Below, piece after piece: positions 4,225-17,690 of a stretch of 64,000 bases of DNA; the stretch's first letter is position 1, and the number at the start of each line of letters is the position of its first letter. The notes under the pieces were generated by a model. The model searched no databases and had not been told where the DNA came from. It worked only from the letters and a program-made list of their open reading frames with translations. The DNA comes from Batrachochytrium dendrobatidis JAM81 (taxonomy: Eukaryota > Chytridiomycota > Chytridiomycetes > Rhizophydiales): assembly GCF_000203795.2 (NCBI RefSeq), contig NW_006281116.1, positions 17,195-81,194 of the forward strand, written 5' to 3'. The position numbers and the translations under genes are program-made.

Positions 4225-5976
4225 GAGTATTCGTCTGGATATTCTAATAATGATGCCTCACTCTTCTCATTGAAAGAAAGTTTTGAAAGCATCACTTCAA
4301 AATGGGAAAAGCCGAATCAAAGCCTGCCACAACTCTATGATATTACCTATGCCTTTCTACTGTCTCGTGTTCTGTTTCTCAAATATCTCAAGGAAAAATA
4401 TCCTAACATAACTCCAGCACAGTTTCTCATTCACCAATTGTTCAACTCAAGAGCCATCAGACTATGCTTTCTGAAACTGAAGCTATTGTCTTTGGACAAG
4501 TTGAACGACATACATTGCAGCTATATTGACGATGATTTGCGCTGCCTCTTTTGTTTTGATCTTTTTCTTGTGTTGGCCGAACATCTTGGAAGCACGATTA
4601 TCGCGTCAATGGAGGGAAATCACATCCAACAAAACGGAGATGTGAATGAAGATTCAAAAAGAGGAACACTCTCAGTCTTGCTGTATGTTATCAAAAATAA
4701 GGAGTTTGCCAAAAAGGTTATTTTTGCTGGAACATCATCAAAACTACGCAACATTGACAACTTTAAATCATTTGGAACGAAACCTGTTGGTCCTCTTATT
4801 CTCAATGAATTCATAACTTGGGACTGTGAAATGGTGTTGGACTATGTGACTGCTTTTGTCGATATTCATCCGGATATTCTCAAGACTGTTCTTACCGACA
4901 ACTATCGACCAAGAATTTTGGAAAACTTTGTATATGACTTGTTCAGTGCTGGAATCAATGACAATGACTCGGCAACGGCACAACGCATACGACTGAAAAA
5001 ACAGCATGCCTTTTCGAATATCAATGATATAGTAGAGGAATCTTACAATGCGGTAATTGGTCGATTCGCTCGTATGTCAATCGAACCTATTGCCAGGACC
5101 ATCAGGGCTCATTCACACACAGATTATGTTAAAGCTTATTTTATCATCAATGATGACGACCAATCATGGACCAATATACTGCCAACTGGACAAGAATCAA
5201 GAATACTTTTTCATGAATACTGTTGGATCTATACATCTCATTCGTGAAACTGGCGGATACTTTTTGTCTGAAGGATATGTGATAGACTTGCTTCTCAATT
5301 TATTCCGAACAGAGTTTCAACAGTTCAATCTGTTGTCATCGTTGGATCTTTTGAGCAGCATTGCTGGCACAAAAGGTAAAAAAACTACAGCCAAAGGAAC
5401 ACCGTTCGAAGCCGTCATTTTGGCTGGTATGATCCAAAAAAATGGACCGCATCTTTCAAACGTCCTATCTAGTTTTGGTGTTTCGATTGCTGGTCTTGAT
5501 GGTTTACAGTTGCCAACAATAGAGCGTAAGGCTGGAGATGGCACAATCATATCCGATAGACCAACAGGAGTCTTTTTTCGTCCTTCAAACCAGTTTCGAC
5601 CAGACATCCTTGCGTTTTTATCCAAACAAGTCTGCGTGTCATTTGGAATCAAGCTATATACATCAAAAATTCCTTCAGCAGTGTCTGCCGATAATCTTGA
5701 ATCTACAAATCCAGATTTTTCTTTATTAAAGCAGATCGGCCAACGAATAACGAAACGTATTTGAAATGGCAGCAGAGTATATCTGATACCCCGTTAAAGT
5801 TTTCAATAAGGTTCTTGATTGAGCTGCCTGAACCACTCAGTGCTGTTTCAACTGAAAATACTTATAACAGCGTCGAGGGAAACCAAAATGTCGTTGTTGT
5901 CGTTTCAAAGAGCAATATGCGCAATATTTTAAGCGAGCAGGTTGCGTCGTTTGTTGAATTCATTACCAGTTCCTGA
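4225..5976 (+). pseudogene. Crinkler (CRN) family relic, 5'-truncated, frameshifted
   Basis: Three successive frames encode one CRN-type protein body: frame 1 from 4225 to about 5130, frame 2 from about 5130 to 5720, frame 1 again to the stop at 5974-5976. The first break lies in GTTAAAGC near 5129-5135. The second is at a T-run (5716-5720) consistent with loss of one base. The first part holds a hydrophobic strand ending RCLFCFD, like an NTPase Walker B strand but without the usual following Glu, and KVIFAGTSS, like a sensor strand. There is no ATG, no N-terminal header domain and no P-loop upstream, so the gene is also missing its 5' end. The C-terminal part keeps PTGVFFRPSNQFRPDIL and a long conserved-looking tail. 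It is not a close copy of the intact CRN at 10283. CRN proteins are established host-directed effectors in oomycetes and are also known in chytrids; this copy is judged dead. Confidence 0.75.
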
Positions 5977-7567
5977 TAATAAATATTGAGCTAATTTGAA
6001 TATTGGATTGTGTTTTGTTTGATTTATTGTATTCAACAAAAGATGCCACAAATCACTTGTCAACTTGATACTATGCAACAGTCGGTTGTTCTTGGTGTAG
6101 ATACAGGTTGAACTACCAATAATGGTTACTGCACACAAAGTCACCCAATATCCTGCCGATTCTGGTTGTGATTGTATTCCACATCCAATTCTAGATTGTA
6201 ATCACAATCACAATTACCGTGTTTGATCAAATGGTGTTTTACATTGATCATGGTATCATACATTACGATACTGCCAGATCACTGCACACAAGTCATGACC
6301 AATACAAATGCATTACTGATTGACACTGATCGACACCATATATACAGCCAGACAGCACAACAAACCACCAGCATGCCATTGACCGTGTTGCAATACAATT
6401 GTCCAACATATCATGATGTGCTGTATCGAGTCACGACATACAACAATATTACTGACTGAACACAAGTCACAACTGCAAGTATTCATATGTTAATCGACTG
6501 ACATTGGTGTTGATATCCAATTGATTGACTAATCGATCATCATCAATTGCATCAGTGATTGGTATATGCAACTGATATACACCATGTCCGAGTCTGATAC
6601 ATGTTGATATATGCGTGTCAATCAGCAATGCAGATTTGTGGTCATTACAGTCGAATGTGAGTCGAGTCGATCACTAAACCAACGAATCAATGATTGCAGT
6701 CTAAATGTGGTGCAATCTGATACGACATGACAATATATTGTCCAACAGGTTCAACAACATACACAGCACCGATATCCAATACATCACACATGTATACACT
6801 GCATATACAAACGGTAGCAATGACCAATCAAAACAACCAGTGACAGAGTTACTCATCAACATATACTCGATCATCAGTCGAGTCTGCATATATCAACTAG
6901 TTGCAACATGTCATAATCAATGTGGATTGTATTGTCCACCAATCGATCATGACAGCTAATCGATACCAATCATGTAGTCAATACAATCACCAACATATCG
7001 ATGATTGTTGACTGGCAATTACAACTCGTCAATTGTATCCAATGTTACAGGTGATGCACATCTGATTACTGCAAATCAACAACTTGTCAATCATATCATA
7101 GTGTGCATTGCCAACAGACCATGCAACTACAAATCAATGTATACGTGATCAACATTTGATATTTGATGGTGATGAACCAACCATGATTGATTGTATCATA
7201 CAACTAATACAGTTGCATTGTCTGGTATTGATGATCGACCCACTCATGTCAAACAGTAACCAATGTGTGTGTATCGAGTTTGGGTTGCATGGACACATCA
7301 ATATGTTTGATAACGAGTCCAACGTGATGATACAAACCCAATATTATATGAATATCCAAGTTGATGAATCAAGTCGAGGTTTGCAAAGTGTCAATGTCAG
7401 GTCAATCAAACAAGTCAGTCAACCGTTATATTGTGACTAGTGATGTCACGGTTTGAATATCAACGAGTTGGACAGTCGACAATATTGGATGATTGTGATT
7501 TGGTCAAACTGCAACACTTGCATATCACTGAGTCGGTTTGGTGTGTGTGGTGTAAACACATACTACT
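5977..7567. other. long TG/CA-rich gene-free stretch
   Basis: About 1.6 kb of AT-rich DNA dominated by ATTG/CAAT, CATG, TCAAC and GTATCGA-like words. Open frames such as 7108-7440 (+, 110 codons), 6223-6459 and 6705-6959 have no domain, start context or intron structure and are probably by-products of the composition. Best read as heavily decayed repeat or transposon DNA. Confidence 0.45.
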
Positions 7568-7640
7568 GGATTGGTGCAATACGATCATGTCATACTATTG
7601 TATTGGTGACAATGTGATATTGAACAGATAAGATTTCGAG
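7568..7640 (+). repeat. left inverted-repeat arm of effector cassette
   Basis: Contains GATTGGTGCAATACGATCA followed by ATTGTATTGG and a purine-rich AGATAAGATT end. The same opening word, with one base change, occurs in reverse complement at 8828-8846, on the far side of the secreted gene, and in direct orientation at 14134-14152. The arms therefore bracket the gene and its promoter. Confidence 0.55.
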
Positions 7641-7790
7641 CGCTTGCAATATAATTGGAGTGGATGAACAATATTGCTTGTGTACCGTCATGTGGTGATA
7701 TCACCTGGAATATATTGTGTAGCGACATCATAGTGCGGCAAGTATAGTCGTTAAACTTGATATCAGGGTTTAAATCAAGCAACAAATCAT
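7641..7790. other. spacer between repeat arm and promoter block
   Basis: Short intergenic DNA inside the putative cassette. No motif recognised beyond AT-rich sequence. Confidence 0.4.
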
Positions 7791-7988
7791 AATATAAAGG
7801 GTGACCCTTTCAAAGTTACCTTGACATTGGTAGTGAATCACTATTAGCCCTGACAACACAAATCCCTTAGGATGGTCATCCAAGAAACATGCTTTTAATA
7901 TTATCCGCTCAATAGTGGATATAAATACAATATAAAAATCAATGTGCTGAATGACAATCATTACAACTTGCTCGACCAAACCAATATA
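7791..7988 (+). promoter_or_regulatory. conserved promoter block of secreted gene 2
   Basis: Aligns with the block upstream of the first secreted gene (1504-1690, minus). It carries TATAAAGGG (about 7793-7801), CTTTCAAAGTT, CCCTGACAACAC, the GGTCATCCAAG segment, ATGCTTTTAATAT, a TATA-like GATATAAATA at about 7919-7928 (roughly 60-70 bases before the ATG) and TTACAACTTGCTC. Order and spacing of these islands are the same in both genes. Confidence 0.7.
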
Positions 7989-8594
7989 ATGAAACTATCA
8001 ATCACCATATTATCATCAATCTTGTCTGTCTGCTCAGTTACTACAGCTAGTCCAGTTTATCCCAGTTCGACCATGAGTGCTGAAGCTAGCACTTTGACAG
8101 CCTCCCCAAGCGCAAATCCAGCTGGTGGAGATGTCTATCCGGTTTTTCCTAGCGCATATAATCTTGAGAAATATTGCGATTCATTCGATACTACTGAAGC
8201 GTCGTTGATCAAAGAAATTGCAAAAGCTCATGTTGGAATTGATGTGATGTCTACACAACTTGAAGGCCTACATTATCAGTATGACTTTCAAAAAGGAGTG
8301 ATTATTAAAGTGGAGCAACAACTCGAAACTCTGCGTCAAACTCCGGGTCAGGAGTTGGGTGCTGCTGAAGCCAGGCTTAAGATGCAGCATGAGGTTCTTG
8401 ATGGACTCAAAAATGAGCTGAAAGAACTCGTTAAGAAAGCTTCGGATATAATTAAGAAAGAAGAGAGTTTGGAGAAAAAGCTTACAGAGCACTTGTCGCC
8501 TGGATCATCAGCGAATGGCGGTATCCTAAAATTAAAAACAGTTTCCGGATATAAGAAATGCTACGAGTTCTTCTTTGATCATTTTTCGCAGTGA
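7989..8594 (+). CDS. secreted coiled-coil effector-like protein, paralogue
   Basis: Single-exon gene of 201 residues starting at the ATG at 7989. Residues 1-21 form a signal peptide (MKLSITILSS, CSVTTA, then SPV), cleaner than in the paralogue at 676-1503. A Ser/Thr/Ala/Pro-rich linker follows (about 22-50). Residues about 75-180 are strongly heptad-like (QLETLR, then long runs of Leu/Glu/Lys), predicted coiled coil. The C-terminus ends YKKCYEFFFDHFSQ. Function is unknown; secretion is inferred from the signal peptide. The gene lies between inverted repeat arms, and its 3' flank is repeated in inverted orientation at 14134-14402, which suggests that the gene moves or duplicates with its flanks. 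Confidence 0.8.
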   Translation: MKLSITILSSILSVCSVTTASPVYPSSTMSAEASTLTASPSANPAGGDVYPVFPSAYNLEKYCDSFDTTEASLIKEIAKAHVGIDVMSTQLEGLHYQYDFQKGVIIKVEQQLETLRQTPGQELGAAEARLKMQHEVLDGLKNELKELVKKASDIIKKEESLEKKLTEHLSPGSSANGGILKLKTVSGYKKCYEFFFDHFSQ

Positions 8595-8853
8595 TTGTTA
8601 CAATCCGAGCATAGTGAAACTCTCCAAGATTCTGGTATTCAGCAACAAACTCCTCAACCAAACTCATCACATTGTTGGAGTTGAGTAAACTATCAACAAT
8701 CTCATCTAGAATATACTACAATACAGCGTGTATTGCATGCTGGTTTAATTGTTATTTGCCATGCATTCAATGTCATCCATTAATAAACATCCTGTATTGT
8801 TAAACCATAGTGTATTATATTAATGGTTTGATCATATTGCACCAATCAACCAC
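8592..8853 (-). repeat. 265-bp flank repeat with right inverted arm
   Basis: Begins at the stop codon of the secreted gene and aligns as reverse complement, with many substitutions, to 14134-14402. Shared landmarks are TGATTGTTACAATC, CAAGATTCTGGT, CAGCGTGTATTGCATG and, at the far end, the reverse complement of GATTGGTGCAATATGATCA (8828-8846). The distal part (8775-8853) is also the inverted partner of 7568-7640. Frames inside the two copies look related on the protein level, but only because the DNA is repeated. Confidence 0.65.
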
Positions 8854-9831: not shown

Positions 9832-9965
9832 TGAACATATGACGGCATATTGATGGTTGTCATTGTTGTCAAGTGTGTTGCAGTTGATTGAAGATGTGAA
9901 TGAATGAATCAATATTCGATTGTGTTGTTTATTAACAAGGAAGTAAGTGTGTTTATAAAATGGAA
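9832..9965 (+). repeat. 140-bp repeat, copy 1, with TATA-like end
   Basis: Resembles 13114-13257 (direct) and 13604-13735 (inverted). Common words are GATCGTGA.CATATGA, GTTGCAGT..GATTGAAGAT, GTTGTTTATTAA and GTGT.TTTATAAA. The end nearest the CRN gene carries TTTATAAA about 330 bases upstream of its ATG. It could be a shared promoter fragment or the end of a mobile element. Confidence 0.6.
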
Positions 9966-10282
9966 GAAACCAAGAAAGTCATGTGAACTCCAGTTCAAAC
10001 GTCATTGTTGATGGTTTTTGATTGTTAAACTATTCAGAAATGTCTCACATTCACACACTACTAATGTCTCACACAATGCAAGTCAACACTCTCACACTAG
10101 TAATGTCTCACATTAATGAAACATTAATTCTGGTGTAAATTTGACTAATTTCCAAATATTTAAATCGTGTGAATTGTCTTGAAATATCCCAAAATTTTGT
10201 TATTTTGACTCGATTAAAAAGTCGATTTTTGTTTTACAATTTGACAAATAAATTGCTTTTTTACTCTTTTTCTTTTCATAAA
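9966..10282 (+). promoter_or_regulatory. CRN upstream region with tandem AATGTCTCACA
   Basis: AATGTCTCACA occurs three times (10039-10049, 10063-10073, 10102-10112), the last two inside a longer CACACTA.TAATGTCTCACA unit. The repeats lie 170-245 bases upstream of the CRN ATG. Their regulatory role is inferred from position only. The stretch just before the ATG is T-rich (TTTTTACTCTTTTTCTTTTC), like a fungal core promoter or leader. Confidence 0.4.
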
Positions 10283-11977
10283 ATGCCAAAACGATTCCTC
10301 AATGTTGAATACGCTGGAACCAGAACCAGAATCAACATTACTGGAATCAGTAGACTTGGTGGAGTTCAGGATGTTATCAAGGCAAAGTATGGAGAAATTA
10401 TTCCTACTCCAGCTGTTCTTATTCAGCTATACGACCAGCAAGGCCAGCAAATCACAGACTTAGATGATATACCACCTGAAAAGACTCCGCAATACTACAA
10501 TAAACTGGCTAAAGGTGGCTCTTGTGTTGTTATTGGTTGTTTACCACTACCTCCAAGACAACCTACCCGAACTGACCTAGTTCCAACATCTGCAGCAGCC
10601 TCATCCGCACTACTGGATTTTTGGACTGCTTTCACAAACTACCCTAACCCTCTTAAAGGAAACACTGTTGTCCAACTTCCAGCAAACATATTCATCCTTG
10701 GAAACCATTCAATTGGATCATCCATTTACATCCGTCCTTGTTATCCTAAACTTCTTGAAAAATCACTATCTATTGTGCAATCTGCTGATATACGTCATTT
10801 GATCATCCTTGGAAATCCTGGAATTGGCAAGACATATTTTGGTTACTTTTTGCTGTTGCATCTTGCTCGCTCTGGTGCTACAGTCGTGTATGAGAGTGGA
10901 GCTGATCAAAAAAGATATCTGCTTACTCCCAATGGTGTAATCGAAGGAGGAAAGCATGCTTTTTGGAAAATCTTGGATTCCTCGTCAACATTCTACATTG
11001 TTGATGGCTCGGCACCTGTTGATGTTGATGCCAAGACCATTCTTGTTACTTCACCTTGTTGGGAAATTTGGCATCGGTTTTGCAAGGGGTCCTGTGACAT
11101 TCGGTATATGCCAGTGTGGTCAAAAGAAGAATTGCATTCCTGTCGCTCAATGCTTTTTCCTACAGTTCCACAAGAATTGGTTGAAAGTCTGTATTTGAAG
11201 TGGGGAGGAATTGCTCGTTATGTTCTTAAATATTCATTGGTAAAAGAACAACAGGATTTTCTCGACAAAGCTTTAAACATTTCCAATATCGATTCAGTTG
11301 TCAAGTCTTTTGGTAAATATGGTGAAAACCTAGATGCTTCAAGTTGTTTGATTCATATATCAGTCAAGGATGGCTTCCACAGTGGTCCTTATCAGTTTGC
11401 TTCTGACTATGTGGTTGATGAAATTTACAACCGTGTCTATGCCAGAGACCGAGATCATCTTATCAGATTCGTTTCTGTTACTCGAGAAATTGGTGGAACT
11501 GGTCAACTTAATAGGGCATTATTTGAAAAGCACGCTCATACAGTTATTGTTAAAGGTGGTTCATTCAAGATTCGTGATTTACGTACCAAGCTGGAGTCTA
11601 CACTTCAACTGCCGATGGATCTTAGTACTTTGTTATTCTCCAACAATTCTCAAGTTCAAGACGCAACGAATTGCTATTTCCGTCCCATTAACAATACTTT
11701 TGAATCTGTTGATTCGTTCATCAAGCCAAATCTACTTTTCCAAATGACATGTGCCAAAGATCATCCTTGCAGACAGGCTGGGCTTCGTAATGTTTTGGAA
11801 ATACTTGGTAATCCGCCAAAACCAGAACTGTATTGTGTTGTACCTCCTGATCGTTTTGCCTGTTTTACACACCAAAGCTACCACGGAACAGATGGTCAAG
11901 TGTTGTCACAAAACGATACTATTGCGAGTGTCAAGAAGTTGAATCGATTTGTTTTGACGTTTGAACCATCTCATTAA
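10283..11977 (+). CDS. Crinkler (CRN) family protein, intact
   Basis: Single-exon gene of 564 residues. The start is the first ATG of the frame at 10283; the frame is open further upstream but only with non-ATG codons. Residues 1-90 match the ubiquitin-like CRN header of chytrids (MPKRFLNVEYAG, then LIQLYD, ITDLDDIP). Residues 131-175 hold a linker typical of this family. A P-loop GNPGIGKT lies at about 177-184 and a Walker B-like strand FYIVDG at about 237-242, so the middle is a P-loop NTPase. The C-terminal part is probably the nuclease-like/variable toxin domain, ending in a conserved-type PPDRFACF..Q and VLTFEP segment. Known biology: CRN proteins combine header, NTPase and effector domains and can act in host nuclei. 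No classical signal peptide or LxLFLAK motif is seen, which is usual for chytrid members. Exact target and activity cannot be read from sequence. Confidence 0.85.
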   Translation: MPKRFLNVEYAGTRTRINITGISRLGGVQDVIKAKYGEIIPTPAVLIQLYDQQGQQITDLDDIPPEKTPQYYNKLAKGGSCVVIGCLPLPPRQPTRTDLVPTSAAASSALLDFWTAFTNYPNPLKGNTVVQLPANIFILGNHSIGSSIYIRPCYPKLLEKSLSIVQSADIRHLIILGNPGIGKTYFGYFLLLHLARSGATVVYESGADQKRYLLTPNGVIEGGKHAFWKILDSSSTFYIVDGSAPVDVDAKTILVTSPCWEIWHRFCKGSCDIRYMPVWSKEELHSCRSMLFPTVPQELVESLYLKWGGIARYVLKYSLVKEQQDFLDKALNISNIDSVVKSFGKYGENLDASSCLIHISVKDGFHSGPYQFASDYVVDEIYNRVYARDRDHLIRFVSVTREIGGTGQLNRALFEKHAHTVIVKGGSFKIRDLRTKLESTLQLPMDLSTLLFSNNSQVQDATNCYFRPINNTFESVDSFIKPNLLFQMTCAKDHPCRQAGLRNVLEILGNPPKPELYCVVPPDRFACFTHQSYHGTDGQVLSQNDTIASVKKLNRFVLTFEPSH

Positions 11978-12427
11978 TAAGGTATGTAGACTATAATTAA
12001 TGATTTTTATTGACTGCATAACGCTAATCCTAACTCTGTTTCTCGATCTCGTTCTACACAATACACGGCGTTTGATTTCTTAAAGGTGAATAATATCGTA
12101 TGGGTTCCATCGGACAACAAACCTCGCTTTGTGGAAATGACCACTTTCATTGTCAGGAACTTCCCAATCGTGTAATTTAATCGCTTTGGTTTTGAAACCT
12201 ATAGTTTCTTGTAAATAATTGCATATCCCAAGACTGTTTTTCATCATACAGTTTTGAAACTAATATTTTGATTCAAGAACAAACTGCGTTTTCCTTTTTC
12301 TTTTGCAAATAAAAGTTGTTTTGTTGCTTACAATTATGGTCAATCAATTGACTGCCAAACTGTACAGCAGTTTTGCTGACATTGGATTTGTCCGATCGAT
12401 AGTCTTGGGTTTCAAACTTGAATCAAA
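11978..12427. other. gene-free stretch 3' of CRN
   Basis: AT-rich 3' flank of the CRN gene. A frame beginning near 12303 has a hydrophobic start (VVLLLTIMV) reminiscent of a signal peptide, but it shifts frame relative to the relic downstream. It may be the remnant 5' end of that relic. Confidence 0.35.
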
Positions 12428-12775
12428 CTCCCAGCTGACGAAACACTGCAGGGATTGTTACAAGCACAAAAGCAGCTGTTTCAAGAGATGTTGGTATGAT
12501 ACAAGGAGTACCAGAAAGTATACTCTTACAAAGAATTGTTTGCAACTGAATTGAATCAAATAGCCATACGTGATAAACAGCGGGTTGATTGTGGTTTTAT
12601 TCCCAATCAATGGTATTGACAAAACCAACCAGGGATGAGCCAGAATCAAGAGTTGGAGGCTAGACACAATTATGAATAGAATATGCTAGAGTATCAAAAA
12701 GATGATCAAAAAAAGCGTGAAATTCAACAGATCAGCAATGATGTCCAAATGCATAGTGTAATCAAGCAGATTTGA
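12428..12775 (+). pseudogene. coiled-coil protein relic with only in-frame stops
   Basis: A single frame (frame 2) reads through about 115 codons of well-formed Gln/Glu/Leu-rich coiled-coil sequence (for example LQGLLQAQKQLFQEM, DQKKREIQQISNDVQ) interrupted only by TGA, TGA and TAG codons, ending at a further TGA. No indel is needed, so this is a coding copy silenced by point changes. The hydrophilic, Gln-rich nature and the hydrophobic frame just upstream suggest a member of a secreted coiled-coil family, but it is not obviously the same family as the genes at 676 and 7989. Confidence 0.55.
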
Positions 12776-13113
12776 ATCCATTTTGGCATTGCAAGACACA
12801 CTATCACATTTGGAAGAGTTGATTGGAAATATAAAGACTCGTACTCGATAAACACGGACTTGTCAGTGGTTTGATTTTATACTCTATCATTCTTACAACA
12901 AGATCCAGCTAAACCCAGTCTGATGTGTACATTAACGCTTAGTACTGGTTAAAAAGCTACCCATTGTATCCAATTTGAGGCATCAAGTATGAGTCTGGCA
13001 CAAATAGCTCGTATTTATTATGAATTACAAGCAAAGCTATTGACTATTCTACCCTAATACTTTTGACTTGAATTCCTTTCTGCGAATAATTTATGTTTTG
13101 ACAACTTTGTGTA
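12776..13113. other. gene-free stretch
   Basis: AT-rich DNA with no recognisable gene, RNA or repeat. It may contain the decayed 3' end of the relic at 12428-12775. Confidence 0.4.
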
Positions 13114-13257
13114 GATCGTGAGCATATGATGGCATGTTGATGGTCATCATTATTGACGAGTAAATTACAGCAAATCAAAGATACAAAGGGATGATCCAAT
13201 AAACTAATTGCGTTGTTTATTAAAGAACGGGAAAGTGTCTTTATAAAGTGGGAGAGC
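13114..13257 (+). repeat. 140-bp repeat, copy 2, abutting the gap
   Basis: Direct copy of 9832-9965 and inverted partner of 13604-13735. Its TATA-bearing end (GCGTTGTTTATTAA, then TGTCTTTATAAAGTGG) runs straight into the run of N. Confidence 0.6.
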
Positions 13258-13357: not shown

Positions 13358-13603
13358 CTGGTGATCACAACTGGTGATCACGGCCCAGATACATGTTAGA
13401 TATTGGTAATATGTGATCTTTGTAATGAGACTTGGACTGCTGAGATGCGCAGTCTGTTGACATGCATTGTGTATGTGGATACTTGTGTGAGCTTCTATGT
13501 TTGGTACATAAGCGTAGTCACCACTGATGGAAGAACTGTAGTAACCAGGAATCCTCAACAATGATGTTTGAGCTATGTCCCTCATATCTTAGTATTCTTC
13601 CAC
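13358..13603. other. sequence between inverted repeat arms
   Basis: Starts with a tandem CTGGTGATCACAA / CTGGTGATCAC directly at the gap edge. The rest has no clear frame of its own. Any gene lying between the arms would be partly hidden in the gap. Confidence 0.5.
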
Positions 13604-13735
13604 TACTATCTCACTTTATAAAAGACACGAGCTTGGATTAATAAACAACGCAATTCATACATTGGTTCATTCCTTCATTGTCATCTTTAACCTACTGCAA
13701 CAATCTTCCCAGTTAACTACTATCAGTATGGTATC
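13604..13735 (-). repeat. 140-bp repeat, copy 3, inverted
   Basis: Reverse complement of the repeat at 9832-9965 and 13114-13257: CACTTTATAAAAGACAC, TTAATAAACAACGCAATTC and the CTGCAAC segment appear in mirrored order. With copy 2 it forms inverted arms around the gap. Confidence 0.6.
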
Positions 13736-14133
13736 TAACGTCCACAAGCTACAATACATACTTTTGTAATAAACAACCAGCTTTATTACTACACCTGTCG
13801 AGTCTCTAGTTTCACAATAGTCTTTGATTTCCAACATGAATACCGCTACATTCAAAAATGCACAACACGCTTGATATGGAACAAAAACAGCACTATTGTT
13901 CACGTTGCTACAAGTATATTGGGATCATCATTGTATCACACACTGCTGGTAGCTGTAAATCGGACGACAAAAACACAAACAGTGATGTTGAACATGATGA
14001 GTAAACCTAGTTGTATTGGTTGCTGTTGCACAAAAACAGCTGTTTTAACAGTACATTTTGAATATCGTAATGTTGATCAATCACAAATATATGGGTTTTG
14101 ATGGGTCCAGTAGATCAATTCAGTGTATAGTAG
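13736..14133. other. gene-free stretch
   Basis: No gene recognised on either strand; only short composition-driven frames. Confidence 0.4.
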
Positions 14134-14402
14134 TGATTAGTGCAATATGATCAATTCAAGCATGCCATGTCGTGTCGTGTCATTGTATTGGTAATGAATG
14201 ATGTTATTGAATGGATGAGATTGAATGCAAGATAAATAAGTAAACCATCATGCAATACACGCTGGATTGTAGCATATCTTACTCGAGACTGTTGATGGTC
14301 CACTTTGAGCTGTAGCAATGTGTCGGGTCTGGTTCAAGAGTTTGTTGTTCAGCACCAGAATCTTGAGCAACTGCACCATGCTCAGATTGTAACAATCATT
14401 GA
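14134..14402 (+). repeat. solo copy of the cassette flank repeat
   Basis: Aligns in reverse complement to 8592-8853, including the terminal GATTAGTGCAATATGATCA and the CAGCGTGTATTGCATG-like segment (here inverted, near 14251-14268). Its first 90 bases also resemble the left arm at 7568-7640. No secreted gene is attached to it, so it may be a flank left behind after loss, or a solo end. Confidence 0.6.
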
Positions 14403-14706
14403 AATACAACATTGTAGAACTAACCGAATCAAACCACTGCATTACCAGTTGATCCGAGATGCATCATATGGTCAATTTTTACCAGACTGAACAACATCCA
14501 AGTAGTGTTGCTTGAATCCAGTTTTGTAAAACTGATATTTCCAAACTATATTTGCTGCAACCCAAGTGTTTTTGATGTTCAATCTCAAGTCGAGTCTTGT
14601 GAATTGGACTGGATTGTTGTTGCATTCAAATCGGGATTGGAATCAGGATCAGGTCGATAAAACAGTCAAATACACAATATCGACACAAACCATAGCAGGT
14701 TGTTGT

Positions 14707-15121
14707 TCACATCCACTGACACCAATCATGACAATATTGTGTAGTTGTCAGTCTGTCGACTGGAATTTCTATTCCGATTTGTATGTTGCCAGAATAGACT
14801 TTTGAATACAAAACATTAGGGATTGTGTCAATGTCTTTGATGTCGATGTTCATGATGGTTTGATCCAAATGAATGGTTTTGATTGAATGTTGGACACACA
14901 ACAGTTGTGTTCATCATACAAGTGTATTGACTGGACAAGGTTCACAAGAATGGTTTGTAAAGTGAGTTGATGTCCACTGCAGTGTCTAGTGTTGATGATA
15001 CAGAGTTTGACCAGGCATATCACTGTTGTATTTGATGAGTGGATCAGTTCCAGTGGTTTGATCTAGTCCAAGAACAGCAATGGAGTTCCAAGAGTTGTAG
15101 CTGGTTTCCATCCTATCCACT
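14707..15121 (-). pseudogene. relic of unknown structural-type protein, minus copy
   Basis: On the minus strand, reading from 15121 downward, a broken frame contains METSYNSWNSIAVLGL and later HLDQTIMNIDIKDIDTIPNV. The first segment is homologous in layout to the plus-strand ETNYNSWDPITVI at about 15142-15180. The two copies are head to head around 15126. Stops interrupt the frame. I do not recognise the family. Confidence 0.4.
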
Positions 15122-15173
15122 ACAGAATAGAGAGTGGATGGAATAGAGACCAACTACAACTCCTGGGATCCCA
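15081..15173. repeat. imperfect 40-bp palindrome at a head-to-head duplication
   Basis: Left arm 15081-15121 and right arm 15132-15173 are reverse complements with several mismatches, separated by about ten bases. Each arm begins a diverging copy of the same coding relic, so this is the centre of an old inverted duplication rather than a terminator. Confidence 0.6.
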
Positions 15174-15590
15174 TTACCGTTATTAGAAACAATGCGACTA
15201 TTGAGATCAACCCATTCAACTCACTCATCAAATCAAACAATAATACTGGGCAAGATGTCGTCAAAAGCATTACAGTAACAAGACTCGATAGCTTGTTATC
15301 AAACACTCTGCTGGATGTTGAGACTCTTTCAAACTACTGGCACTAGAACAAACCATCCCAAAACACAATTGTATGTGGAAATGAAAAGACTTTACAGCAG
15401 ACTCGGCAAAGTACGAATATCACACAACTTCCATTGGAGATGGTGTTGCTTTGCATACTACAGCAGGAATTACATTCACACTTGAAAGTAATGTTGATAC
15501 ATTAAACATATTCTTTACAACTTCAACTGAATACTTCAAGACCAAGAAGATTATTACCAATCTGAAGCAAGGCTAGTGTTTTCCCTTGTA
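15122..15590 (+). pseudogene. relic of unknown structural-type protein, plus copy
   Basis: Frame at 15134-15346 reads ETNYNSWDPITVI and then ITVTRLDSLLSNTLLD. After a stop and frame change, GDGVALHTTAGITFTLES appears (about 15440-15490). The Asn/Thr/Ser-rich beta-like texture resembles structural or capsid-like proteins of mobile elements, but this is an impression, not a match. Non-functional as it stands. Confidence 0.35.
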
Positions 15591-15794
15591 CGCTTGAAAC
15601 AGCAACTCAAGTGGAGAGTCATCTCGAGTTTATTGGAGCTTCGGACAATGTTCTTGGTCTTGATCCAAAGTCTTGTCGTTTATTGAAAGCAAGACTCGAA
15701 TGATCTGCCTGTTCGTCATTCTGTAAATGGACAACCATTTGACTTGTAAAGATGTATCAAGAGGATACACAGTGCCAACCAACAGAAATGACTT

Positions 15795-16520
15795 GTGGAG
15801 ATATTGGACATATGGATGTGTGCAGTGATTGACCAAGTTTATGGATATCTCGCTTTGAACAATCTGATCTATGAATGTGTGACTTGTTATGTTACCTATT
15901 TGGTTTGGCAACCTGTCAGAGATACTCTGCGTATCAGCCATTCCATTTACAACGATCTGTGTTCTCCTAGTCGTATTCAGGCAATCTATTTGTTCAACTT
16001 GTTTTACAAGACCATCAAACTGAACAGCAGGAATTAGACTCCAGTTCAACAGACTCTGACAGTAATGATTCAAGCACAATCAAGTATAATCTGAGTGTGG
16101 ATTCACTTTGTTCTGGTACTGTGATTGGATTTGGAGCAACTGGTCAAGTCATTCGACTCAATGACTGCAACATTGTTGTCAAACATTGTGATTCCTACAA
16201 CAATCTTGATGTATTCAAAATGCTAATCAAATATCAATTTACGAAAAGCTCGCCAAACTCAATCTACAATATGTTGCACGCTATTATGGAGAATGTGAGT
16301 ATTACGAACAGTATTTCACTTGATTGGTTTGGACTTTATTCCTGGAAAACACTGTGACTGGAGAACAGACAATGAGTTGAATTGGATTATTCGACACTTG
16401 TAATCGGTTGGTGTGATTCATGAGGACTTGAGACCAGGAAACATGCTTTTAACTGGTCAAGGGAATATCAAATTGATCGACTTTGGCAAGACACAGATCA
16501 AGACTTGCGTCACGAATTGA
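15795..16520 (+). pseudogene. nuclease-like plus protein kinase domain relic (CRN-type C-terminus)
   Basis: An upstream frame (about 15825-16037) carries VYGYLALNNLIYECVT, which resembles the segment before the kinase in CRN-type nuclease-kinase fusions. From 16097 a kinase begins with glycine-rich loop IGFGATGQV and a Lys-bearing NIVVKHCD strand. After a frame change comes YEKLAKLNLQYVARYYGE, and after another [13 protein letters not shown] (HxDxxxxN catalytic loop) and KLIDFGKTQ (DFG). Stops and at least two frame changes show it is dead. Assignment of the kinase fold is good; assignment to the CRN class is inference from arrangement and neighbourhood. Confidence 0.6.
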
Positions 16521-17690
16521 TGGTTTATCGACCAAGCAGAATCCAAGACTTGTCCAGTAAAAACACAACCATACTGACCTTTTATCGACTACTCATTGAC
16601 TACTCACAAAATCAAATATTTGCAAATCTGATGTTCAAGTCTTTCAATTTCTGTAAATGTTCAAGCATATTCAAGAGTTTAAACATTCCATGAGATTGTC
16701 GACTAGAATGTGTTTATTGTTAAACTAATAAAAACGCAAATGCAACTCGTTTGTTTGCTAATTGACAATCTGCTTTTATAGTTGTTTGTGAACTCATGAG
16801 ACACAAATACAAACCGACTTTGGTATCAGGCTTAATTAAAAGTGTCATTAAGCATCAATCGCATGGCCAGTTCCATTCAAAGATTGACACTGGACATTGG
16901 TTAGACTTGACATTTGCATACATGAGTTCAAGACACATGATGCTTGAATATCAGTGGTGATATTTGACAAAAATGGTCATTTTCAATTCTAAACCAAAAT
17001 GGTTCATTTCAGTATTGAGAATACTTGGAATCTTACAATAAACATTCAAGCATGATCTTGTACCAAACACCACTGATCATCCGTTGGTTTAAACGCAACT
17101 CAACAACAACAGGGATACTTTACTGGATAGACCATCAAGTGACAAACACCAATATTTCAAAAAGCCTATTTTCTAACAAAACATTGCAAATACTTTGAAA
17201 TGGAATCAATACAAACTAGACATATTTGTGAATCTATATCGAGTTTATTTGGTGCAACTATTGTTAACACGATAGTGTTAAATCAAAGAAGCCATCTCTT
17301 TTATAGAAAGAGATTGGGTTGCAGTAATTTGGGAACTTTTGAGAACTTGGAGGTTATGTGGTTCACAGAGAGGGGCTACATAGTGGCGATGATCTTGGCG
17401 CAATTGGATCCTATCTGGGTGTAATCGTAACATCAATTTCAAGACCACATTCATATATGATCCAATTGTACTACAAACCTGATCTCTGGTAATTCCACAA
17501 TTGTTAAGCCATGTCAAGGTCCTAAACCACTGCAACTCAGTCACTCCTCGTCTCAGTTTCTCGTTGGGTCTCACTCATCCGTCGGCACTCATCTCGGCCT
17601 ACAACATCAAAGAATACCAGGTATACAAATATAATATTAAATAATTGCAGCTAGTAACCTCGATACGATACATTCACCTATAATAAATAG
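16521..17690. other. gene-free stretch
   Basis: No gene recognised. A perfect short hairpin ATCTCTTT-TATAG-AAAGAGAT lies near 17290-17312. Frames at 17200-17424 (+) and 17278-17574 (-) have no domain. Confidence 0.4.

What the first reader, a model, noticed from the sequence alone, without database searches (positions are those of the whole stretch)
7568..8853. Secreted effector gene packed between inverted repeat arms
The secreted gene at 7989-8594, together with its conserved promoter, is bracketed by arms that share GATTGGTGCAATA(C/T)GATCA in opposite orientation (7568-7640 and 8775-8853). A solo copy of the right flank lies at 14134-14402. This is the layout of a mobile or recombination-prone gene cassette and would offer a mechanism for the expansion of secreted gene families in this lineage.
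Basis: partly seen in the sequence, partly recalled or inferred. Interest (0 to 1): 0.75.

Follow-up and report, generated by a model that had tools for sequence, protein, structure and literature searches.

The report
Shuffled effector genes with shared flanks
A frog-killing fungus carries more than a hundred relatives of a predicted secreted-protein gene, about thirty of them bracketed by the same 19-letter inverted sequence, and they have likely multiplied and been shuffled through their shared flanks rather than by jumping as a transposon.

Summary
The gene at 7989-8594 is bracketed by an inverted 19-nt core (7569-7587, 8829-8847; one mismatch); the arms share nothing more above shuffle. 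Genome-wide (Batrachochytrium dendrobatidis) the core has 219 hits against 2 for the control. 58 of 62 right-type arms lie 3' of a member of this family; 23 of 40 arms of another type lie likewise behind an unrelated secreted family. A transposon is not supported: in 22 of 26 copies a near-identical block continues outside the left arm, and no target-site duplication abuts the arms (0 of 20). But the right arm does mark an edge: copies carry four unrelated right flanks, and all three departures from the commonest lie inside the core or within about 20 nt of it. The upstream block differs by about 5% whatever the coding divergence. One copy, L019, is a two-parent mosaic with its switch in the last 20-110 bp before the right core. 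The 'solo' flank belongs to a repeat carrying a family gene's 3' flank down to its stop codon. Best reading: block duplication plus ectopic recombination, with a fast-diversifying mature protein. What the core does is unknown.

The parts
6775..7555 (+). upstream block shared by paralogous loci (no ORF of 100 aa or more; 93-98% identical between loci)
   Evidence: 40 scored copies of 69 candidates
7569..7587 (+). left arm, 19-nt core
7588..7988 (+). conserved promoter region of the gene
   Evidence: median divergence 0.177 over 325 pairs
7989..8594 (+). secreted family-1 gene, 201 aa; signal-peptide-like start (by eye), predicted long helical hairpin, cysteines C63 and C191 invariant in 16 aligned sequences
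8595..8828 (+). 3' module (stop codon to right arm), with AATAAA at 8782-8787
8829..8847 (-). right arm, 19-nt core; the place where right flanks of the copies change class
13752..14622 (+). repeat X, 12 further copies with the same ends at 97-98% and one longer; carries a family-1 3' flank. On contig C26 it lies about 520 bp 3' of a CRN-like gene
14154..14402 (-). relic family-1 3' module inside repeat X; the 3' flank of the intact gene in L055 matches X 103-647 at 94%, the match ending at that gene's stop codon
676..1503 (-). second, diverged family-1 gene in the window (275 aa); no arm core beside it at up to 4 mismatches

Best explanation
The segment is one copy of a large secreted-gene family of Batrachochytrium dendrobatidis whose 19-bp inverted arms are fixed parts of the gene's 5' and 3' flanks, and the copies have likely spread by block duplication and been shuffled by ectopic recombination or gene conversion through shared flanks, not by transposition. 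Shown: a block outside the left arm that is about 5% diverged in 22 of 26 copies; promoter, signal peptide and 3' module better conserved than the mature coding region; four unrelated right flanks that all begin at or within about 20 nt of the right core; one copy (L019) that joins the coding region of one clade to the right flank of another. Inferred: that the gene is secreted, that shared flanks and the 3' module are the handles for recombination, that diversifying selection drives the mature part, and that the right arm is an edge because intact units end there, not because it is cut by an enzyme.
For: (26 copies, 325 pairs): the upstream block is shared by 22 copies (all 231 pairs among them); median divergence 0.049 (5-95%: 0.035-0.081), with no rank correlation to coding divergence (rho 0.06 with dN, permutation p 0.22), while mature dS has median 0.63; at sites that separate L023 from four type-B copies, L019 follows L023 at 189 of 199 sites up to +1176 (5 follow B, 5 neither; only 2 sites lie before +289) and B at all 144 sites from +1195 on. 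L019 against L023 has mature dN 0.01 but an unrelated right flank (44%); L019 against L024 has dN 0.55 and a 99% identical right flank; tandem copies L021a/L021b, 2.2 kb apart, are 100% identical in the signal-peptide bins and 94-100% from +1100 to +1399, but 50-82% in the mature bins; 31 of 40 blocks are followed within 1.3 kb by a family gene on the same strand, 0 on the opposite; 45 of 139 rows lie within 50 kb of a contig end (12.9 expected; 11 rows on contigs of unknown length left out); 40 of 126 gaps between successive rows are 10 kb or less (11.8 expected; a few gaps are two rows of one gene); 6 of 8 disjoint pairs have dN>dS.
Against: The right arm behaves as an edge: past it only 120 of 320 measured pairs are 75% or more alike, and the three departures from flank class A lie at about +11 (inside the core; class B), +30 (class S) and +40 (L028) from the core's inner end, as an arm-bounded event would give. 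Only one mosaic was shown, and a draft assembly can join paralogues wrongly. With both candidate parents L022 and L023 required to agree, just one gap column separates the L019 switch from the core, so a switch at the core's edge is not excluded. One of 8 disjoint pairs is individually significant for dN>dS, with an approximate count of synonymous sites and L018 left out; the 113 of 113 pairs with dS<0.5 and dN>0.03 are not independent. The constant 5% of the block could mean that it is a younger repeat that spread by itself: 16 of 40 blocks have no left arm within 300 bp, and 7 of those no family gene within 1.3 kb on the same strand.
Confidence: 0.65

Rival explanations
1. The 19-bp core is a shared cis-regulatory or transcription-end element of effector genes, kept by selection near secreted genes (it contains ATTGG, the complement of a CCAAT box, and begins about 40 bp past the AATAAA of the 3' module); the inverted pair is then a promoter copy plus a 3'-end copy, and right flanks change there because the needed 3' region ends there.
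For: Fixed distance to the end of the coding match: 51 of 62 right-type hits at 206-250 bp; 23 of 40 hits of another type behind an unrelated secreted family, 18 of them at 247-250 bp (BLASTP between the two proteins E 0.074). The core stays recognisable where left and right flanks are alike only at shuffle level. 35 of 61 left-type hits lie 347-429 bp 5' of the match start.
Against: 85 of 150 listed family rows have neither arm by the patterns used. Core hits were selected for matching the core, so its high identity between contexts is partly built in. No expression data here. The CCAAT reading is recalled, from no call. It does not compete with the account of how the copies spread.
Confidence: 0.3
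2. The arms are terminal inverted repeats of a non-autonomous DNA transposon that captured a secreted gene and amplified it.
For: Inverted pair around the gene; 219 dispersed hits of the core; four unrelated right flanks that begin at or close to the right core.
Against: The block outside the left arm is shared by 22 of 26 copies; no direct repeat of 2-8 nt at the arm edges in 20 of 20 copies with both arms found; left and right arm alike over 19 nt only; two of three right departures lie 10-20 nt beyond the core, not at its end; 34 of 65 arm-bearing rows have one arm only; L034 lacks the left arm together with sequence on both sides of it. A partner transposase was not searched for.
Confidence: 0.08
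3. The cores are sites of a site-specific recombinase that inverts or exchanges the cassette.
For: Inverted 19-bp sites around a promoter plus gene; right flanks change at the core.
Against: 24 of 40 blocks are followed within 300 bp by a left arm in the same orientation and 0 of 40 by a right-type arm in the orientation an inverted cassette would show; the 31 family genes found within 1.3 kb all have the block's strand. No recombinase was sought.
Confidence: 0.04

Closest known systems
Two-speed genome compartments of Batrachochytrium (PMC9926174, passages read)
   Same: Several secreted tribes and genes with dN/dS above 1 are reported there as enriched in gene-sparse parts of the B. dendrobatidis genome; repeats flank effector families
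   Different: The passages read describe LINE and unclassified repeats beside M36 proteases of B. salamandrivorans; none describes a 19-bp element shared by unrelated secreted families, an inverted pair, or mosaics of this family
Subtelomeric antigen families with conserved flanks (trypanosome VSG, Plasmodium var/rif; recalled)
   Same: Many copies near contig ends, conserved flanks, hypervariable mature part, a mosaic copy
   Different: Switching of expression is not shown here; no homology was tested; many members lie far from contig ends
CRN-like genes in gene-sparse regions of chytrids (PMC5364385 and PMC3207900, passages read)
   Same: Genes that I label CRN-like lie beside these secreted genes and, on C26, beside repeat X
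   Different: Family 1 has a signal-peptide-like start and a predicted helical hairpin, not a CRN-type N terminus
TIR / MITE-type non-autonomous DNA transposons (recalled)
   Same: Short inverted repeats around a segment present in many copies; right flanks differ from the right repeat on
   Different: No target-site duplication, left flank shared by most copies, arms alike over 19 nt only

Membership tests
TIR-type DNA transposon | terminal inverted repeats | tested here: inconclusive
   19-nt core inverted; nothing beyond it above shuffle
TIR-type DNA transposon | target-site duplication next to the repeats | tested here: not met
   0 of 20 copies, k = 2-8; the copies share ancestry, so these are few independent events, and an old duplication may have decayed
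TIR-type DNA transposon | homology between copies ends at both repeats | tested here: not met
   left: block shared by 22 of 26 copies; right: four flank classes, departures at about +11, +30 and +40 from the core's inner end, so the right side comes close to meeting it
TIR-type DNA transposon | autonomous partner with transposase and the same ends | not tested
   no transposase search was made
Recombining subtelomeric multigene family | copies enriched near chromosome ends and clustered | tested here: met
   45 of 139 rows within 50 kb of a contig end against 12.9 expected; contig ends are not proven telomeres
Recombining subtelomeric multigene family | conserved flanks with hypervariable mature region | tested here: met
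   26 copies; on the right only within a flank class
Recombining subtelomeric multigene family | mosaic copies | tested here: met
   L019; one case, assembly error not excluded
Recombining subtelomeric multigene family | switching or mutually exclusive expression | not testable with these tools
   no expression data

The most novel reading that the evidence does not exclude
A single 19-bp element is the common joint of several unrelated secreted effector families in a vertebrate-killing fungus: it sits at a fixed place behind their stop codons and, inverted, before promoters, right flanks are exchanged at it, and it marks interchangeable units from which the fungus reshuffles its secreted repertoire, in the way parasites vary their antigens.
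Probability: 0.18. Interest if true: 0.85.

Novelty: new variant of a known kind. Interest (0 to 1): 0.58.

Why it matters
How B. dendrobatidis multiplied its secreted proteins bears on amphibian decline. This family is large, was found only in B. dendrobatidis in our one protein search, has no Pfam match above cut-off for the window's member, and shows the signs expected of a recombining repertoire: homogenised flanks, exchanged right flanks, a fast mature part. The 19-bp core gives a concrete tag with which such units can be found in every isolate assembly and followed for gain, loss and mosaicism.

Tried and rejected
Arms as 73-79-nt repeats: rejected by shuffle test. Against that, the inner part of the left arm does resemble the inner part of repeat X's arm (0 of 300 shuffles), and left and D-type arms resemble each other on their outer side (0 of 300); these are relations between contexts, not between the two arms of the cassette. 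Transposon with TSD: 0 of 20. Inversion between the arms: no inverted cassette seen. L034 as an empty left-arm site: the missing stretch is wider than the arm on both sides. My first reading that homology runs across the right arm in most copies was wrong and was mended; odds were changed for it (best explanation 0.70 to 0.65, transposon 0.06 to 0.08, recombinase 0.03 to 0.04, novel case 0.15 to 0.18). Repeat X as an independent transposon: its sharp ends are where the window departs from a longer shared unit; the other 12 same-ended copies agree with each other upstream, and downstream 10 of 12 agree while 2 match the window. Fold: predicted helical hairpin (mean pLDDT 77.4, residues 1-51 below 50); PDB search gave no match at E<=0.001, only weak coiled-coil-like ones. 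Pfam: nothing above cut-off for the gene or the neighbours scanned; one relative, P0003, carries a precomputed PF05859, not followed. The script that classified core contexts put some hits in the wrong class; no count rests on it. Papers: searches in an open-access library; no listing or passage that I read describes these arms.

Full report
Where it is. The window is contig C10:17195-81194 of a 23.49-Mb genome in 33 contigs. All 21 protein relatives at E<=0.001 (of 348 candidates) are named Batrachochytrium dendrobatidis, and JAM81 proteins among them sit on contigs of 1082576, 1564682 and 748538 bases, the lengths of C33, C26 and C5 here. The assembly is therefore JAM81 or one with the same contigs (inference).

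The observation. The 19-nt core is at 7569-7587 and inverted at 8829-8847. With the core removed, the rest of the quoted arms is no more alike than shuffled sequence (score 12; 1973 of 2000 shuffles equal or better). Longer flanks agree: for the window copy 37 of 300 (inner) and 151 of 300 (outer) shuffles reach the score, for L017 109 and 37 of 300. The core itself is far above chance: 219 genome hits at up to 2 mismatches, 2 for the control.

What it is tied to. The whole segment has 60 blastn matches in its genome (40 of 217 candidates scored). The protein has 152 matches (208 candidates, 150 scored); I used the 150 listed rows. By my count about 114 of them align over 100 residues or more, the rest mainly over the signal-peptide end. 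A right-type arm pattern has 62 hits; 58 have a family row on the expected side and strand within 1 kb, 51 of them at 206-250 bp (0.003 expected per arm). A left-type pattern has 61 hits, some of them right-type arms that the loose pattern also caught; 37 have a family row in the expected place, 35 at 347-429 bp. 31 of 150 rows have both arms, 28 only the right, 6 only the left, 85 neither. Of the 100 core hits listed at zero mismatches, 44 were in neither arm list. A pattern for one further context has 40 hits, 23 of them 3' of a second secreted family (32 tblastn rows), 18 at 247-250 bp. The window's protein and that family's L035 member show no significant similarity (BLASTP E 0.074), but in the one pair tested (L017, L035) the 3' modules do, on both sides of the core (0 of 300 shuffles each).

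Left side. In 22 of 26 copies the block outside the left arm is shared, with all 231 pairs above 85% identity and a median divergence of 4.9% (5-95%: 3.5-8.1%); L021b, L022, L026 and L027 lack all or part of it. For example L009 and L016 are 92-98% identical from -800 to -101, 85% in the last 100 bp before the arm, 89% just inside it, falling to 48% in the late coding region and back to 94% at the right arm. The left arm is thus not an end of homology.

Right side. Of 320 pairs measured past the right arm only 120 are 75% or more alike. The copies fall into four flank classes: A (15 copies, 100 of 105 pairs alike), B (5), S (5, the contig-end copies L029-L033) and L028 alone; no pair between classes reaches 75%. 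Against seven class-A copies, class B departs at about +11 from the inner end of the core (inside it), class S at about +30 and L028 at about +40, that is within about 20 nt of its outer end (L010 and L019 gave no core there and L024 stood for class B). Three departures of three at this place make the right arm an edge of the conserved unit. Whether this is a recombination site, or merely where the needed 3' region ends, these data do not tell.

Not a transposon, as far as tested. No direct repeat of 2-8 nt flanks the arms in any of 20 copies with both arms found. 24 of 40 blocks are followed within 300 bp by a left arm in the same orientation, none by a right-type arm in the orientation of an inverted cassette, and none by a family gene on the other strand within 1.3 kb.

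How the copies relate. The upstream block's divergence does not correlate with coding divergence (rho 0.06 with dN, p 0.22), whereas promoter and 3' region, diverged by medians of 17.7% and 16.2%, do (rho 0.57 and 0.44). The block therefore has a different recent history from the genes: homogenised among loci, or spread later. Mature coding regions have median dS 0.63. In pairs with dS below 0.5 and dN above 0.03, dN exceeds dS in 113 of 113, but these overlap; for dS 0.5-1 it is 41 of 104 and above 1 it is 0 of 92. Of 8 disjoint pairs 6 have dN>dS and one reaches p<0.05 (L010/L024, p 0.002, approximate site counts). Signal peptides show the reverse (dN<dS in 292 of 300 pairs, L018 left out). 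Diversifying selection is suggested, not proven.

Recombination. L019 carries the coding region of L023 (dN 0.01) and the right flank of class B (97-99%). At sites separating L023 from four class-B copies, L019 follows L023 at 189 of 199 sites up to +1176 (5 follow B, 5 neither), and B at all 144 sites from +1195; only 2 sites lie before +289. The stop codon is at +1037 and the core's inner edge at +1263. Of the 15 B sites before the core, 13 are gap columns, 12 of them one deletion in L023 that L022 lacks. If L022 and L023 must agree, the last L023-like site is +1152 and a single gap column (+1244) precedes the core. The switch therefore lies about 20-110 bp inside the core, in the 3' module, and its exact place is not fixed.

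The 'solo' flank. Positions 13752-14622 recur in 12 further copies with the same ends and in one longer copy. Part 103-647 matches the 3' flank of an intact family-1 gene on C15 at 94% and ends at that gene's stop codon. In the one C26 copy read further, a gene lies about 520 bp upstream that I call CRN-like from recalled resemblance and a motif quoted in PMC5364385; no search tested the label. The simplest reading is that such a gene and a family-1 gene once faced each other, the family-1 coding region was lost, and the rest was duplicated as part of a longer unit (inference).

The protein. 201 aa with a signal-peptide-like start (no predictor was run), two invariant cysteines in 16 aligned sequences and a predicted hairpin of two long helices. 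No fold match at E<=0.001. 'Effector' is an inference from predicted secretion, diversity and neighbourhood.

What is known. PMC9926174 (passages) reports secreted tribes enriched in gene-sparse regions of B. dendrobatidis, and positive selection there; PMC5364385 (passages) reports tribes of unknown function and CRN-like genes in gene-poor regions; PMC3207900 (passages) reports 62 CRN-like genes; PMC12204190 and PMC11797018 (passages) deal with other families and with assembly quality, the latter suggesting that many M36 genes of the older JEL423 assembly were wrongly identified duplications, a caution for any count here. None of the passages read mentions a shared 19-bp element or inverted arms. 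That is a statement about these passages and the searches named, not about all literature.

Noticed in passing
window 9871-10088 and 13455-13707: Inverted repeats of about 74-79% stand on either side of the CRN-like gene at 10283-11977; a similar bracket around another effector-like gene.
   Followed up: no
window 13205-13224 and 13637-13656: The only other place in the window with inverted 19-mers of at most one mismatch within 3 kb.
   Followed up: no
window 12300-13110: A repeat with 15 other copies over the same 811 bases at 97-98%, several of them close to the upstream blocks of contig-end cassettes.
   Followed up: no
window 14620-17202: Another dispersed repeat begins where repeat X ends (copies from query base 621 on).
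   Followed up: no
window 4609-5764: Two overlapping ORFs in different frames (4609-5247, 5126-5764), perhaps one broken gene; nothing above Pfam cut-off for the first.
   Followed up: partly
window, N run after 13257: A run of about 100 N, a gap or withheld stretch, 3' of the CRN-like gene.
   Followed up: no
L035:483-1388 and relatives: Second secreted family: 24 of 32 tblastn rows have no internal stop, 8 have one; L023 carries it in two frames.
   Followed up: partly
L017:8393-8995, L023:8421-9086, L035:6135-6734, L019:357-758: A recurring protein (MDALYNGG... in L023 and L035) near several cassettes; the L023 copy has no Pfam match.
   Followed up: no
L029-L033: Five contig-end copies share their own right flank; L033, the one compared, also has a promoter that departs from other copies about 30 nt inside the left core.
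   Followed up: partly
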